DNA of 61,410 bases, from assembly GCA_913060645.1 (NCBI GenBank), contig CAJXSW010000004.1:1-61410 (forward strand), written 5' to 3'. Below are positions 7,181 to 10,492 of this stretch, one piece after another. Positions within the stretch are counted from its first letter, which is position 1, and each line of letters opens with the position of its first letter. The translations under genes were made by a program, and so were the position numbers. The stretch comes from an uncultured Dokdonia sp. (GTDB lineage Bacteria > Bacteroidota > Bacteroidia > Flavobacteriales > Flavobacteriaceae). The notes below the pieces were generated by a model. It saw only the letters and a list, made by a program, of their open reading frames with translations, did no database searches and was not told the DNA's origin.

Positions 7181-7188
7181 TATATTTG
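7181..7188 (+). promoter_or_regulatory. -7 box upstream of the GTPase operon
   Basis: TATATTTG, a perfect TAnnTTTG match, 29 nt before the ATG at 7218. The -33 TTG is not clear. An inverted repeat (7138-7144 with 7157-7163) just before it may separate this unit from fbp. Confidence 0.5.
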
Positions 7189-7217: not shown

Positions 7218-7568
7218 ATGGCTAAAAAAGACCCTACACAGAACGAGCAACTACCTGATGTTGCAAATTCTAAAATTGAGGCTATCAAAAACCTCATTTT
7301 TGGTGAAAATATTCAAGAATATAATCACGAATTTGATACGCTTAAGGCAGATATCACGCAAAAACGTGAAGAAATGCTTTCTTATGTAGACGACGCTCGT
7401 AAAGAGATTATGACTGCCATTGATAATCTGAGTACAGATGTAAATATTCGTATCTCGGATCTTGAACAGGCACTTGATGATAAAACTCAAGACCTTGATA
7501 ATAGAAAGGTAAGCCGTGATAGCTTAGGTGATATGCTCATACGTCTTGGTGAGAATATAAAAGCTTAG
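7218..7568 (+). CDS. Small coiled-coil protein of the GTPase operon
   Basis: A 116-residue, highly charged protein with no signal peptide and no membrane segment. After a short polar N-terminus, residues 15-100 are predicted almost wholly helical with heptad-like spacing (IKNLIFGENIQEYNHEFDTL, then MTAIDNLSTDVNIRISDLEQ). The short basic-acidic tail ends in a Leu-rich patch (DMLIRLGENIKA). I do not recognise a named family. It is first in a four-gene unit (21 bp to the next gene) whose other members are a longin-like protein, a small GTPase and a hybrid kinase. A scaffold or oligomerising adaptor for these is an inference from position only. Confidence 0.75.
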   Translation: MAKKDPTQNEQLPDVANSKIEAIKNLIFGENIQEYNHEFDTLKADITQKREEMLSYVDDARKEIMTAIDNLSTDVNIRISDLEQALDDKTQDLDNRKVSRDSLGDMLIRLGENIKA

Positions 7569-7589
7569 ATCAATCTCTGAAAATTTTTA

Positions 7590-8390
7590 ATGACAACTGA
7601 TGAACGTCTTGAAATTTTAAAAGAGCTTTTACTCACAGATGAGAAAAAGCCTGAGAATGATATATACAGAAAACTCAAAGACCTAGAAGAGAGACAGCAA
7701 CACTTATCAGATAGAGTGGGTCCCATTCTAGATGAACGTTTGTTGAACTTTGTAAAAGAGATGCCCGAAACTCTAGGGCCAACAATAACCCAAACATTAA
7801 AATCTGAAATTAAAAATTCTCAGGATGCTGTGGTAGAAGCATTATACCCTATTATGGGTAAAATGATAAAAAGGTATGTCCAAGCAGAAATAAAAAAGCT
7901 TAACGACTCCATAAGTGAGAAAATAGATAATGCATTTTCATTTAGAAGTATGTTTAAGTCTAAGGGTAAGGAAAGACCTACTGCAGCGGCACTGCTTAAA
8001 GAAGAATATAAAGCGTATATTGAACAAATACTTGTAATCGAAAAAGGTTCTGGATTGCTTAAAGCAAGCTATTCAAAAACCAAAACGATGGACAAAGATA
8101 TGATGGCGGGTATGCTCACGGCCATAAAAAGCTTTGCAGAGGACGCTTTTGAGAGAGGGGATATGGAATTAGAGAGGATAGATTATCAACTCTATACTAT
8201 TCATTTACAAAATTTCTCAGAATATTATATTGCCGTAATTTTGAGCGGTATTTATGATGATGAATATAAAAATAAACTTGATGATGTGTTACTTGACTTT
8301 GCTCAGTTTGTGATAAACAAAGATGATTTAAGTGACAATCAAAAATTTACCAAAAAATTAAAAGAGTATTTTACAGATGAGCGTATCTAA
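7590..8390 (+). CDS. Helical protein with longin/roadblock-like C-terminal half
   Basis: A 266-residue soluble protein. Residues 1-120 are charged helices with a repeated pattern around PILDERLLNFV and GPTITQTLKSEI. Residues ~135-245 read as a compact alpha/beta unit: strand (EQILVIEKGSGLLKASYSK), helix (DMMAGMLTAIKSFAEDAF), strands (LERIDYQLYTIHLQNF, YYIAVILSG), helix (KLDDVLLDFAQFVI). That order is the longin/roadblock pattern. Such folds are often regulators or platforms of small GTPases, and the next gene, which overlaps by 14 bp, encodes one. Similar halves occur in some cyanobacterial OmpA-type proteins. The fold call rests on reading secondary structure by eye. Confidence 0.6.
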   Translation: MTTDERLEILKELLLTDEKKPENDIYRKLKDLEERQQHLSDRVGPILDERLLNFVKEMPETLGPTITQTLKSEIKNSQDAVVEALYPIMGKMIKRYVQAEIKKLNDSISEKIDNAFSFRSMFKSKGKERPTAAALLKEEYKAYIEQILVIEKGSGLLKASYSKTKTMDKDMMAGMLTAIKSFAEDAFERGDMELERIDYQLYTIHLQNFSEYYIAVILSGIYDDEYKNKLDDVLLDFAQFVINKDDLSDNQKFTKKLKEYFTDERI

Positions 8391-8871
8391 AAAAATAGTA
8401 TTACTAGGACATTTTGGTGTTGGTAAGTCTTCACTGCTTCGCAGGTTTGTTGAGAATAACTTCTCAGATAACTATGTAGTGACTATTGGTGTGCATATAA
8501 TGAAGAAGGAGGTAACTATTAACTCCGATAAAGTAACGTTAATCATATGGGACGTAGAAGGAACAGATGATTTTACAAAATATAGACCATCATACTTAAT
8601 GGGAGCTTCTAGCTTTATTTATGTGTTTGATGCATCTAGAGCAGTAACATATGGTGATTTAAAATATAACTTAAGTCACTTAAAAGATAAGTATCCCCAA
8701 GTGCCTGTGCACATTATCGGAAATAAAGTAGACTTAGTCGACAAGGATGAAATCATGGCAGCTCTCAAGGCTCAAGATGTTCAACATAGCTATCTTTCCA
8801 GTGCAAAGACCGGAGAAAATGTTGAACAGCTGTTTAATGATGTAGCAGCGCAATTGCTTGAAAATGCTTGA
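8377..8871 (+). CDS. Ras/Rab-like small GTPase
   Basis: A 164-residue stand-alone P-loop GTPase. All G boxes are visible: G1 GHFGVGKSS (11-19), switch I Thr36 in VVTIG, G3 WDVEGTD (58-64), G4 NKVD (116-119) and G5 SSAK (141-144). Length and order match the Rab/Ras core, with no C-terminal Cys for lipid attachment. In G3 the usual DTAGQ is DVEGT: the catalytic Gln is Thr63 and the Ala is Glu61, so self-hydrolysis should be weak and a partner may be needed. It overlaps both neighbours (14 bp upstream, 8 bp downstream), so it is made together with the longin-like protein and the hybrid kinase. Its role is unknown; MglA-type polarity switches are the nearest bacterial comparison. Confidence 0.9.
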   Translation: MSVSKKIVLLGHFGVGKSSLLRRFVENNFSDNYVVTIGVHIMKKEVTINSDKVTLIIWDVEGTDDFTKYRPSYLMGASSFIYVFDASRAVTYGDLKYNLSHLKDKYPQVPVHIIGNKVDLVDKDEIMAALKAQDVQHSYLSSAKTGENVEQLFNDVAAQLLENA

Positions 8872-10435
8872 TAACCTTAGACAGGATTTTTTTAATAAAA
8901 CCACACAATTACTTATTGTTAATAGAGGACTGAATGTTGTAGACTCAGATCAAAACCTATTTTCTATTAGCAAAAACTCTGATATAACAGAGTTTCACCC
9001 ATTTTTCTACTCACTGATGAATGTCTTTGAGGAGACAAAAAAAGAACATACTTTCTTTTGTGTTCAAGTAGAGGTGCTTGGAAAACTTTATTTCTTAGAT
9101 ATAAAGACCATATTAAGAGATGACGATACGTTAGTCGTAATTTTAAACGATCTCACAGATCACTACAAAACCGTACATCAGATTAAACAGGTGCGTAATG
9201 AGTCTATTATAGGTTTTAATATCACACAAGAACTCAATCAAGAGTTAGAAATACAGCGTAGTTTTAAGAATAAGTTTCTTGCAAACGTAAGCCACGAAAT
9301 CCGCACTCCGCTCAATAGTATTGTGGGTTTTCTTTCTGTGCTAGAAAATACAGATATCACAAGAGAGCAACTAGACATTCTTAATATTGTAAAAGATTCA
9401 TCTAAGAACCTAGTGACTATTTTAGATGACTTGATGGATATATCTAAGATTGAAGCAGGCAAGTTAGAAATTAAAAAGAGGCGCTTTGATTTTAAGGAAT
9501 TTATAGAAGTTTTAGGGAAAACCTATCAACTCAGAGCAGATGAGAAGAGACTTTCTTTTGAGTTTGAGATGGGTTCGAAGATTCCACGTTTCTTAGTGGG
9601 CGATCATCTTAGAATCAATCAGATCCTTGTAAACTTATTAGAGAATGCACTTAAATACACGCATCAAGGAAATATAAAATTCTGTGTAAAAACAGATTCT
9701 CAAAATGCGAGAAGAATTCCTGTTACTTTTGAAGTAACAGATACTGGAATAGGAATACCTAAGGAGAAGATAGATAGTATTTTTGATAGCTTTACACAGT
9801 TAGAAAAAAGAGGTCTCTTTGGAGGGTCTGGATTAGGACTTAGTATCGTAAAACAACTCACACACTTGTTAGAGAGTGATCTTGAGGTAAGCAGTGTAGA
9901 GGGCAAAGGATCTACATTTAGTTTTACGGTGTATATGGGGGTTTCTCATAACCAGAAACGAGAGAAGAAAGAAAAGACTAAGAAGACAAAGAATAAAAAA
10001 GCTACTGGAAAAAAGCCACGTATTTTATTAGGAGAAGATGTTGAGGTGAATCAGTTGTTAATGCTTCGTCTATTTGTAGATCATGGTGCTTATAGTATAG
10101 ATATTGCAAAAGATGGTGAGCGTGTTCTAGAATTTTTAGACAGAAACACTTATGATTTAGTGATACTTGATCTTACGATGCCTATAATGGATGGGCTTGA
10201 TACTGCAGTGCAGATACGAAGTCACTCTAATAGTAAAATAAGTAAACTACCTATTATAGCGCTTACTGCTAGAACGGCCCAAGAAGAGCAAGATGCAGCA
10301 AAGGAAGCAGGTATGAATGCTTACTTAACGAAGCCTATAGATGCAGAGCTCCTTTTTGAAACAATAGAGAGACTCTTAACGCGTTATAAAAGAAAAAGTA
10401 AAGAAGTACTTTCTTTAGAAGGGGAGGAAGAGTAA
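8864..10435 (+). CDS. Hybrid histidine kinase with C-terminal receiver
   Basis: A 523-residue cytoplasmic hybrid kinase without membrane segments. Residues 1-110 look like a PAS-type sensor (LYFLDIKTILRDDDTLVVIL). The H-box is NVSHEIRTPLN (His144), the N-box NQILVNLLENALKYT, G1 DTGIGIP, G2 GGSGLGLSIV. A Lys-rich linker (~365-385) leads to a receiver with phosphoacceptor Asp436 in LVILDLTMP and Lys in YLTKP. I choose ATG 8864 over the TTG at 8858. The start overlaps the GTPase stop by 8 bp. A strong terminator follows. Being soluble and coupled to a GTPase, it may read the GTPase state; that is inference. Confidence 0.92.
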   Translation: MLDNLRQDFFNKTTQLLIVNRGLNVVDSDQNLFSISKNSDITEFHPFFYSLMNVFEETKKEHTFFCVQVEVLGKLYFLDIKTILRDDDTLVVILNDLTDHYKTVHQIKQVRNESIIGFNITQELNQELEIQRSFKNKFLANVSHEIRTPLNSIVGFLSVLENTDITREQLDILNIVKDSSKNLVTILDDLMDISKIEAGKLEIKKRRFDFKEFIEVLGKTYQLRADEKRLSFEFEMGSKIPRFLVGDHLRINQILVNLLENALKYTHQGNIKFCVKTDSQNARRIPVTFEVTDTGIGIPKEKIDSIFDSFTQLEKRGLFGGSGLGLSIVKQLTHLLESDLEVSSVEGKGSTFSFTVYMGVSHNQKREKKEKTKKTKNKKATGKKPRILLGEDVEVNQLLMLRLFVDHGAYSIDIAKDGERVLEFLDRNTYDLVILDLTMPIMDGLDTAVQIRSHSNSKISKLPIIALTARTAQEEQDAAKEAGMNAYLTKPIDAELLFETIERLLTRYKRKSKEVLSLEGEEE

Positions 10436-10455: not shown

Positions 10456-10492
10456 AAAAAGGGGAAGATCTCATGAAGATCTTCCCCTTTTT
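10456..10492. terminator. Bidirectional rho-independent terminator
   Basis: A 16-bp perfect stem (10456-10471 with 10477-10492), 5-nt loop, GC-rich middle, A-run on the left and T-run on the right. It serves both the GTPase/kinase operon and the convergent TerB-like gene. Confidence 0.88.

What the first reader, a model, noticed from the sequence alone, without database searches (positions are those of the whole stretch)
7218..10435. Operon joining a Ras/Rab-like GTPase, a longin-like protein, a coiled-coil protein and a hybrid histidine kinase
Four genes on one strand: gap 21 bp, overlap 14 bp, overlap 8 bp, a -7 box before and a strong terminator after. A stand-alone Rab-size GTPase beside a possible longin/roadblock regulator is the gene pair known from MglA-MglB polarity and from eukaryotic GTPase platforms; here it is fused by overlap to a soluble hybrid kinase. 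A GTPase switch that feeds a phosphorelay (or the reverse) would be a new signalling unit.
Basis: partly seen in the sequence, partly recalled or inferred. Interest (0 to 1): 0.87.

Follow-up and report, generated by a model that had tools for sequence, protein, structure and literature searches.

The report
Bacterial Rab-like GTPase, longin, kinase operon
A marine flavobacterium carries a conserved four-gene set that couples a small Rab-like GTPase switch and a longin-like partner protein to a two-component signalling kinase; the gene set was catalogued in 2014, but the predicted longin identity of its 'unknown' partner makes the mechanism testable.

Summary
They are not a new unit: they match the Group 1 Rup GTPase neighbourhood described in 2014 (PMC4316618: coiled-coil protein, protein with an unknown domain often followed by OmpA, Rup GTPase, output such as a histidine kinase). 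New here: (1) the unknown domain (C-terminal half of the 7590 product) is predicted to be a longin (VIA Z up to 12.9; the TRAPP longin Bet5 is the top, weak, PDB profile hit). (2) The kinase starts with a PAS domain followed by a Gln that is identical in 56 of 56 kinases. (3) Longin and GTPase co-occur: 65 of 299 and 62 of 298 family genomes, the 62 all among the 65; the four-gene order holds in 55 of 59 loci. (4) In five genomes where the operon is split, the GTPase is followed by a PAS-type protein. (5) Five loci add a second GTPase plus a kinase-less PAS protein. (6) Outside the class the longin protein is OmpA/TM-anchored and outputs vary; one group of distant kinases shows no detectable PAS-Gln relation. 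This favours flow from GTPase to output; binding itself is inferred.

The parts
7181..7188 (+). TAnnTTTG box (Bacteroidota -7-like; consensus recalled)
   Evidence: not above chance by itself (88 in window, 75.5 expected)
7218..7568 (+). gene 1: 116-aa coiled-coil-type protein with a conserved N-terminal motif (IKNLIFGENIQEY here)
   Evidence: homologue first in the operon in 55 of 59 family loci and in three plasmid loci (Nostoc, Mesorhizobium, Rhizobium)
7590..8390 (+). gene 2: 266-aa protein, helical N-terminal half plus C-terminal longin-like domain
8016..8387 (+). longin-like domain of gene 2 (residues 143-266)
   Evidence: AF2 order strand-strand-helix-three strands-helices, block pLDDT 57-81; VIA Z 12.9 to an AP sigma subunit; region profile hits Bet5 at E 0.035
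8377..8871 (+). gene 3: 164-aa Rab-like small GTPase (Group 1 Rup type): GHFGVGKS, DVEGT, NKVD, SAK
8563..8565 (+). Thr63 at the position of Ras Gln61
8864..10435 (+). gene 4: 523-aa soluble hybrid histidine kinase (PAS-type N-terminus, HisKA, HATPase_c, receiver)
8864..9157 (+). N-terminal PAS domain of gene 4 (residues 1-98)
   Evidence: AF2 mean pLDDT 86.9, VIA Z 10.7 to PAS domains; by fold only, no Pfam PAS match
9188..9190 (+). Gln109, in the helix after the PAS core
   Evidence: 56 of 56 kinases incl. the window; 16 of 16 rows incl. Nostoc and rhizobial outputs
9293..9295 (+). His144, phospho-acceptor of HisKA
   Evidence: HisKA match; invariant in 16 rows
10169..10171 (+). Asp436, phospho-acceptor of the receiver
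   Evidence: Response_reg match; invariant in 16 rows
10456..10492 (.). 17-pair terminator-like stem between convergent genes

Best explanation
The operon is a soluble, anchor-less member of the Group 1 Rup GTPase systems. Shown: a Rab-like GTPase is encoded with a coiled-coil protein, a protein whose C-terminal half is predicted to be a longin domain, and a hybrid histidine kinase that starts with a predicted PAS domain and an invariant Gln. Inferred: the longin protein, probably as a dimer and together with the coiled-coil protein, binds the GTPase and controls its nucleotide state (GEF, GAP or platform, as longin and roadblock dimers do for Rabs and MglA); the GTP-bound GTPase then docks on the PAS-Gln region of the output protein and switches it, here the kinase and its phosphorelay. 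The invariant Gln may stand in for the catalytic Gln that most of these GTPases lack, so the effector could also time the switch.
For: Four-gene order in 55 of 59 family loci. Longin in 65 of 299 and GTPase in 62 of 298 genomes, the 62 all among the 65 (Fisher 5e-61 if the other 233 have neither). Longin fold with weak independent sequence support (Bet5 E 0.035; Fuz_longin_1 E 0.0091 in 1 of 34 members). PAS fold of the kinase N-terminus. In the five split genomes followed up, the GTPase gene is directly followed by a PAS-type output: by profile in two (E 6e-38, 5e-34), by weaker tests in three. A second GTPase followed by a kinase-less PAS protein in 5 of 55 loci. Related PAS-Gln regions lead a hybrid kinase in Nostoc and a cyclase in rhizobia (hhalign 95-96%, controls under 1%), and possibly a sigma-54 activator (44-47%). 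The GTPase lacks Gln61 while Gln109 is invariant; the 2014 paper made the same in-trans suggestion.
Against: No binding, exchange or kinase assay; no complex could be predicted (the tool takes single proteins). The longin model has block pLDDT of only 57-81 and overall pTM 0.45; Foldseek interleaves Rag GTPase chains (ranks 4, 5, 8, 9) with the longins and lists MglB from rank 17. 5 of 55 GTPases carry Gln at the Ras-61 position although Gln109 is kept in all 55 kinases, which weakens the in-trans Gln idea. Five distant kinases that follow or neighbour the GTPase show no relation to the PAS-Gln region (hhalign 0.9%), and the kinase N-terminal profile did not hit the outputs in the plasmid and other-class loci directly. 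Genome G601 has genes 1-2 but only a 3e-4 GTPase match in a long frame. 2 of 8 stand-alone PAS proteins lack the Gln.
Confidence: 0.6

Rival explanations
1. Localisation rather than gating: the GTPase with its longin and coiled-coil partners forms a positional cue (pole, envelope) and recruits the output enzyme there, without changing its activity.
For: In other lineages the longin protein carries a hydrophobic segment and an OmpA domain, which would fix it to the cell wall; a coiled-coil partner is found beside the longin in 58 of 59 family loci.
Against: In this family the anchor is absent: 57 of 58 homologues have no segment at or above 1.6 on a 19-residue hydropathy scan. The Gln sits in the helix that leads from the PAS to the kinase, a signalling position.
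Confidence: 0.2
2. Reverse flow, as proposed for the actinobacterial conservon: the kinase senses a signal and controls the GTPase, which is the output.
For: The 2014 paper argues this for conservons, which have no response regulator. The kinase has its own PAS, a usual sensor fold.
Against: In the same slot other lineages have a cyclase or a sigma-54 activator, which are not kinases; here the kinase has its own receiver domain.
Confidence: 0.13
3. The longin-like half is a PAS/GAF-like ligand sensor that does not touch the GTPase; the genes are kept together only for co-regulation.
For: Longins belong to the wider PAS/GAF-like fold class (PMC4917890, passage); direct contact is not shown.
Against: The best structural matches are longins, with TRAPP and Mon1-Ccz1 subunits among them; near-perfect co-occurrence with the GTPase, also in genomes where they are unlinked.
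Confidence: 0.07

Closest known systems
Group 1 Rup GTPase systems (Wuichet and Sogaard-Andersen 2014, PMC4316618; passages and sections 16, 17, 18 read; figures and supplement not seen)
   Same: Single-domain Ras-like GTPase lacking the G3 Gln; neighbours are a coiled-coil protein, a protein with an unknown conserved domain, and an output protein (diguanylate cyclase/phosphodiesterase or histidine kinase) with an invariant Gln in its N-terminal region; Bacteroidetes are among the listed taxa.
   Different: Here the partner protein has no TM or OmpA; its domain is predicted to be longin-like and the output's N-terminus PAS. Placement in the paper's tree is untested.
Actinobacterial conservon (CvnABCD), as described in PMC4316618
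   Same: Histidine kinase, a candidate GTPase-regulator protein and a small GTPase in one operon.
   Different: Conservon uses an MglB-type roadblock protein, an MglA-type GTPase and a membrane kinase with a C-terminal LPxR. No roadblock match and no membrane segment were found here; LPxR was not looked for.
MglA-MglB polarity switch
   Same: Small GTPase next to an alpha/beta protein of the roadblock/longin group.
   Different: Regulator has longin, not roadblock order of elements; no Robl_LC7 match in the genome; the 60 PDB hits shown for the GTPase are Rab-type.
Eukaryotic and Asgard longins (TRAPP subunits, Mon1-Ccz1, Lokiarchaeal longin 8yqg)
   Same: Predicted fold; the putative partner is a Rab-like GTPase; Bet5 is also the top profile hit.
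   Different: Bacterial, in an operon with a histidine kinase; nothing points to vesicle traffic; homology versus convergence not settled (sequence signal weak).

Membership tests
Group 1 Rup GTPase system | Ras-superfamily single-domain GTPase with eukaryote-like G1-G5 | tested here: met
   Pfam Ras E 9e-35; GHFGVGKS, DVEGT, NKVD, SAK; the 60 PDB hits shown, of 866, are Rab-type
Group 1 Rup GTPase system | Catalytic Gln missing in G3 | tested here: met
   Thr63 in the window. In 55 family GTPases: N 27, T 16, Q 5, S 2, Y 2, H 2, K 1, so 5 relatives do have Gln
Group 1 Rup GTPase system | Neighbourhood of coiled-coil protein, conserved-domain protein and signalling output module | tested here: met
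   55 of 59 loci. Genes 1-3 in the same order, followed by a kinase or cyclase, in Nostoc, Mesorhizobium and Rhizobium plasmid loci; OmpA found in the two of these given to Pfam
Group 1 Rup GTPase system | Invariant Gln in the N-terminal region of the output protein | tested here: met
   Gln109, 56 of 56, 16 of 16 across phyla; that it is the same Gln as in the paper's figure 4 is not verified (figure not held)
Group 1 Rup GTPase system | TM and OmpA after the conserved domain ('often' in the paper, not obligatory) | tested here: not met
   gene 2 has no Pfam OmpA and max hydropathy 0.81
Group 1 Rup GTPase system | Placement in the Rup Group 1 clade | not tested
   the 71 reference sequences were not on hand
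Longin domain | Longin fold (two strands, helix, three strands, C-terminal helices) | tested here: met
   predicted model only; VIA Z 9.8-12.9 for the 50 listed entries, nearly all longin-fold by recall
Longin domain | Sequence match to longin families | tested here: inconclusive
   Bet5 E 0.035 and 0.46; Fuz_longin_1 E 0.0091 in 1 of 34 members, none for the window copy, and an unrelated family at 0.00088 in 1 member; full-length gene 2 and its profile gave no longin
Longin domain | Binds a small GTPase or trafficking partner | not testable with these tools
Actinobacterial conservon | Roadblock (MglB-type) protein in the operon | tested here: not met
   no Robl_LC7 in genes 1-4 or in the 89%-complete genome (the family rings in 3 of 14 control genomes)
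Actinobacterial conservon | Membrane-spanning kinase | tested here: not met
   max 19-residue hydropathy of the kinase 1.17
MglA-MglB | Roadblock GAP partner | tested here: not met
   no Robl_LC7 in the genome; gene 2 model is closest to longins, though MglB is in the Foldseek list from rank 17
PAS-containing hybrid histidine kinase | PAS sensor, HisKA, HATPase_c, receiver with His and Asp | tested here: met
   PAS by fold only

The most novel reading that the evidence does not exclude
Bacteria of several phyla run a Rab-longin switch: a longin dimer (cell-wall-anchored via OmpA in most lineages seen, soluble in this class) loads or unloads a Rab-like GTPase, and the GTPase plugs into a portable PAS-Gln receiver domain that has been joined to interchangeable outputs (histidine kinase, cyclase, perhaps sigma-54 activator, or nothing). 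It would be a bacterial counterpart, perhaps an ancient relative, of the longin platforms that control Rabs in eukaryotes. (Lowered from 0.45 to 0.42: one group of distant kinases shows no PAS-Gln relation.)
Probability: 0.42. Interest if true: 0.78.

Novelty: new member of a known kind. Interest (0 to 1): 0.55.

Why it matters
Group 1 Rup GTPases were listed in 2014 as uncharacterised, with an unknown partner domain and an unknown GAP. Predicting that domain as longin-like and the output's receiver as PAS plus an invariant Gln turns a gene list into a three-protein mechanism that can be tested in a few assays. If the longin binds the GTPase, the Rab-longin partnership, usually discussed for eukaryotes and Asgard archaea, would also work in ordinary bacteria, feeding two-component and second-messenger signalling.

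Tried and rejected
MglA-MglB reading: rejected because gene 2 has longin order of elements and the genome has no Robl_LC7 match. Conservon membership: rejected. Sequence search of gene 2 in the PDB gave nothing, and the profile of full-length gene 2 gave one chance-level hit; only the longin-region profile of 34 diverse members gave Bet5. The Pfam/NCBIfam hits of genes 1 and 2 are below their cut-offs and look like coiled-coil noise. A shared N-terminal motif between genes 1 and 2: hhalign probability 62%, E 8e-5, suggestive only. The -7 box was not above chance. Test of one common PAS-Gln domain in every output: supported for Nostoc, rhizobia and the 307-aa proteins, moderate for the sigma-54 activators, not found for the kinases of L059, L060, L062, L063, L066. 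Literature: searches showed no experimental paper on Group 1 Rup systems in what they listed (one search lists 20 of 1,191, one search lists 20 of 25); searches showed no title or abstract naming a longin in this operon (listings, partly capped). The library lacks most subscription papers, for example Levine 2013, so absence from print is not established. A covariation analysis between GTPase and longin was not tried: the pairs on hand seemed too few.
Full report
WHAT IS THERE. They encode a 116-aa coiled-coil-type protein, a 266-aa protein, a 164-aa Ras-family GTPase (Pfam Ras E 9e-35) and a 523-aa hybrid kinase (HisKA, HATPase_c, Response_reg). None has a convincing membrane segment (max 19-residue hydropathy 0.45, 0.81, 1.0, 1.17). 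Upstream lies a fructose-bisphosphatase gene, downstream a convergent TerB-family gene, with a 17-pair terminator-like stem between. The genome is most likely a Dokdonia: same-genus genomes share contig lengths with records titled Dokdonia; I call its family Flavobacteriaceae from general knowledge.

CONSERVATION. In the genus sample 17 of 18 genomes (own included) have gene 2; one, G004, has no match. In the family, the gene 2 profile matches 65 of 299 genomes (E up to 1e-3) and the GTPase profile 62 of 298 (E up to 1e-15). The 62 are all among the 65. The three others are a 150-base fragment (G508), a hit broken by stops (G491) and a divergent hit (G601). If the remaining 233 lack both, Fisher P is 5e-61; the lists of negatives are cut, so I could not check that both calls drew the very same genomes. 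I fetched 59 loci from 58 of the 65 genomes: 55 have the four genes on one strand in the order 1-2-3-4, three have only genes 1-2, one is degenerate. In the 55, the spacing from longin to GTPase, by mechanical first-start ORFs, is the same 14-bp overlap in 29 and at most 62 bp in 44.

SPLITS AND DUPLICATIONS. Genomes where genes 1-2 stand alone were followed up. In G581 and G693, and in three distant genomes (G187, G091, G070), the GTPase is elsewhere in the genome. In G693 and G581 it is directly followed by a kinase that matches the N-terminal profile (E 6e-38, 5e-34). In G187, G091 and G070 it is directly followed by a 307-aa protein without a Pfam match in the copy scanned. These three did not hit the kinase profile, but profile comparison with the kinase N-terminus gives 76% (E 2e-5), or 95% (E 5e-8) when pooled with the two rhizobial cyclases, against under 1% for three control alignments; the first 150 residues of one of them match the first 150 of the Mesorhizobium cyclase at 28% over 125 residues, E 3e-16. 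At L109 (G581) the window's neighbours (amino acid kinase, acetyltransferase, fructose-bisphosphatase, TerB-like; matched by eye) are kept while the GTPase-kinase pair is absent. Five of the 55 loci (L124, L125, L127, L128, L132) have a second, divergent GTPase after the longin gene, followed by a 198-223-aa protein that matches the kinase N-terminal profile (E 3e-22 to 6e-26) but has no kinase domain and no phospho-acceptor His. Two more loci (L123, L137) have a stand-alone PAS-type protein without a second GTPase. So GTPase and PAS-Gln region tend to travel as one pair, coiled coil and longin as another.

WHAT THE UNKNOWN HALF OF GENE 2 IS. A template-free AlphaFold2 model from 16 sequences has no confidence in the N-terminal half (pLDDT under 50 nearly throughout residues 1-139), but gives residues 143-266 as strand-strand-helix-three strands-helices with block pLDDT of 57-81. 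Structural comparison lists AP-complex sigma and mu subunits, zeta-COP, Sec22b, VAMP7, TRAPP subunits, Mon1-Ccz1, Fuzzy and a Lokiarchaeal longin at Z 9.8-12.9 over 107-127 residues. By recalled fold labels nearly all of the 50 listed entries are longins; at least one (3lgo) I recall as roadblock-like. Foldseek alone interleaves Rag GTPase chains (ranks 4, 5, 8, 9) and lists MglB from rank 17, as expected for sister folds, so longin rather than roadblock rests on the order of elements and the VIA ranking. A sequence profile of this region from 34 diverse members, searched against PDB sequences, returns four hits, of which the best (E 0.035) and third (E 0.46) are the TRAPP longin Bet5. One of the 34 members matches Pfam Fuz_longin_1 at E 0.0091, one matches an unrelated family at E 0.00088, the window copy matches none. 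Each line is weak alone; together I put the longin fold at about 0.9.

THE OUTPUT PROTEIN. Kinase residues 1-140 model with mean pLDDT 86.9 as a PAS domain and a long helix, Z up to 10.7 to PAS domains. Gln109 lies in the first part of that helix and is identical in 56 of 56 kinases, window included, and in 16 of 16 rows that include the Nostoc kinase and two rhizobial cyclases, at 15-20% identity. Stand-alone PAS proteins keep it in 6 of 8.

BEYOND THE CLASS. In a phylum-wide sample gene 2 relatives occur in 14 of 395 genomes. The three from the same class, own included, have 269-283-aa open frames; the 11 others (12 loci) have 598-738-aa frames. Of these 12 loci, nine have the GTPase nearby (five in line, four divergently transcribed) and three have it elsewhere; gene 1 was not found by profile in one, L066. 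OmpA was found in 5 of 5 long forms given to Pfam (L055, L036, L037, L059, L058), and a hydrophobic segment of 1.88-2.5 in 9 of 9 long forms scanned. Plasmid records of Nostoc, Mesorhizobium and Rhizobium have genes 1-3 in the same order, then a kinase or cyclase; one is annotated hypothetical protein, OmpA family protein, Rab family GTPase, adenylate/guanylate cyclase. The output slot holds a hybrid kinase with Hpt (Nostoc), a Guanylate_cyc protein (Mesorhizobium), a sigma-54 activator (L055, L057; L056 by similarity of its ends) or a kinase followed by an NtrC-type regulator (L062). Are their N-termini the same domain? Against the flavobacterial PAS-Gln profile: Nostoc plus rhizobia plus the 307-aa proteins 96% (E 6e-9); sigma-54 activators 44% (E 2e-4); the kinases of L059, L060, L062, L063 and L066 0.9%, like the controls. 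So a shared receiver domain is supported for some outputs, uncertain for others, and not found in that kinase group; in the three split genomes a kinase whose start looks like that group follows the 307-aa PAS-type protein (by eye).

COMPARISON WITH THE LITERATURE. Wuichet and Sogaard-Andersen 2014 (PMC4316618; passages and sections 16, 17 and 18 read; figures and supplement not seen) describe Group 1 Rup GTPases with these neighbours, note the missing G3 Gln and the invariant Gln in the output's N-terminal region, and propose a conservon-like signalling system; by that paper no Rup member had been characterised. The present operon fits on each non-optional feature that I could test. It lacks the OmpA anchor, which the paper calls frequent, not universal. 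Five of 55 family GTPases have Gln in G3, an exception to the 2014 description. Work on Asgard GTPase regulators (PMC10933270, passages) reports longins from Lokiarchaeota and Odinarchaeota and calls the roadblock/longin families archaeal in origin; a 2016 review (PMC4917890, passages) lists 'Longin/Roadblock' as present in bacteria without separating them; a 2012 paper derives longins from roadblock-type regulators (PMC3521125, passages). The searches listed no paper that by title or abstract names a longin in the Rup operon, within a library that lacks most subscription papers.

HOW IT LIKELY WORKS. Shown: linkage, co-occurrence, predicted folds, active-site residues. Inferred: (a) longin plus coiled coil form the regulator of the GTPase; (b) GTPase-GTP acts on the PAS-Gln region; (c) this switches the kinase, which may pass phosphate to an orphan Hpt (two Hpt-like hits in the genome, one over cut-off) and on to a regulator. 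Outputs that are not kinases in the same slot, and duplicated GTPase-PAS pairs, favour flow from GTPase to output over the reverse. The stimulus is unknown. I give about 0.93 to membership in Group 1 Rup systems and about 0.5-0.6 to the mechanism.

VERDICT. A new member of a known kind, with a useful new prediction for its key partner domain.

Noticed in passing
L124 5308-6398, L125 3418-4505, L127 5238-6328, L128 3536-4622, L132 3432-4518: Five flavobacterial operons carry a second, divergent GTPase (Phe at the Ras-61 position) plus a stand-alone PAS-Gln protein without kinase; possibly a competing or damping branch.
   Followed up: partly
L092, L094, L097, L098, L104: Five loci have two tandem kinase-size ORFs (501-511 aa) that both match the same N-terminal PAS profile.
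   Followed up: no
L109 (G581) and L120 (G693): The fructose-bisphosphatase neighbourhood and genes 1-2 are kept while the GTPase-kinase pair sits together elsewhere in the genome.
   Followed up: yes
L105, L112, L116, L119, L122: Five family GTPases have Gln at the Ras-61 position, unlike the published description of Group 1 Rup.
   Followed up: no
L146 (G601): Divergent genes 1-2 in a complete genome without a clear Rup-type GTPase; what the longin does there is unknown.
   Followed up: partly
G000:C1:43097-43300: Orphan Hpt-domain ORF (118-aa frame), a candidate phosphate acceptor for the hybrid kinase.
   Followed up: no
window 7218-7330 and 7590-7680: Genes 1 and 2 appear to share an N-terminal helical motif (hhalign probability 62%, E 8e-5), perhaps a joint docking helix.
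   Followed up: partly
L059, L060, L062, L063, L066: A separate group of kinases beside the GTPase whose N-termini show no relation to the PAS-Gln domain; in L160-L162 a kinase that looks similar by eye follows a 307-aa PAS-type protein.
   Followed up: partly
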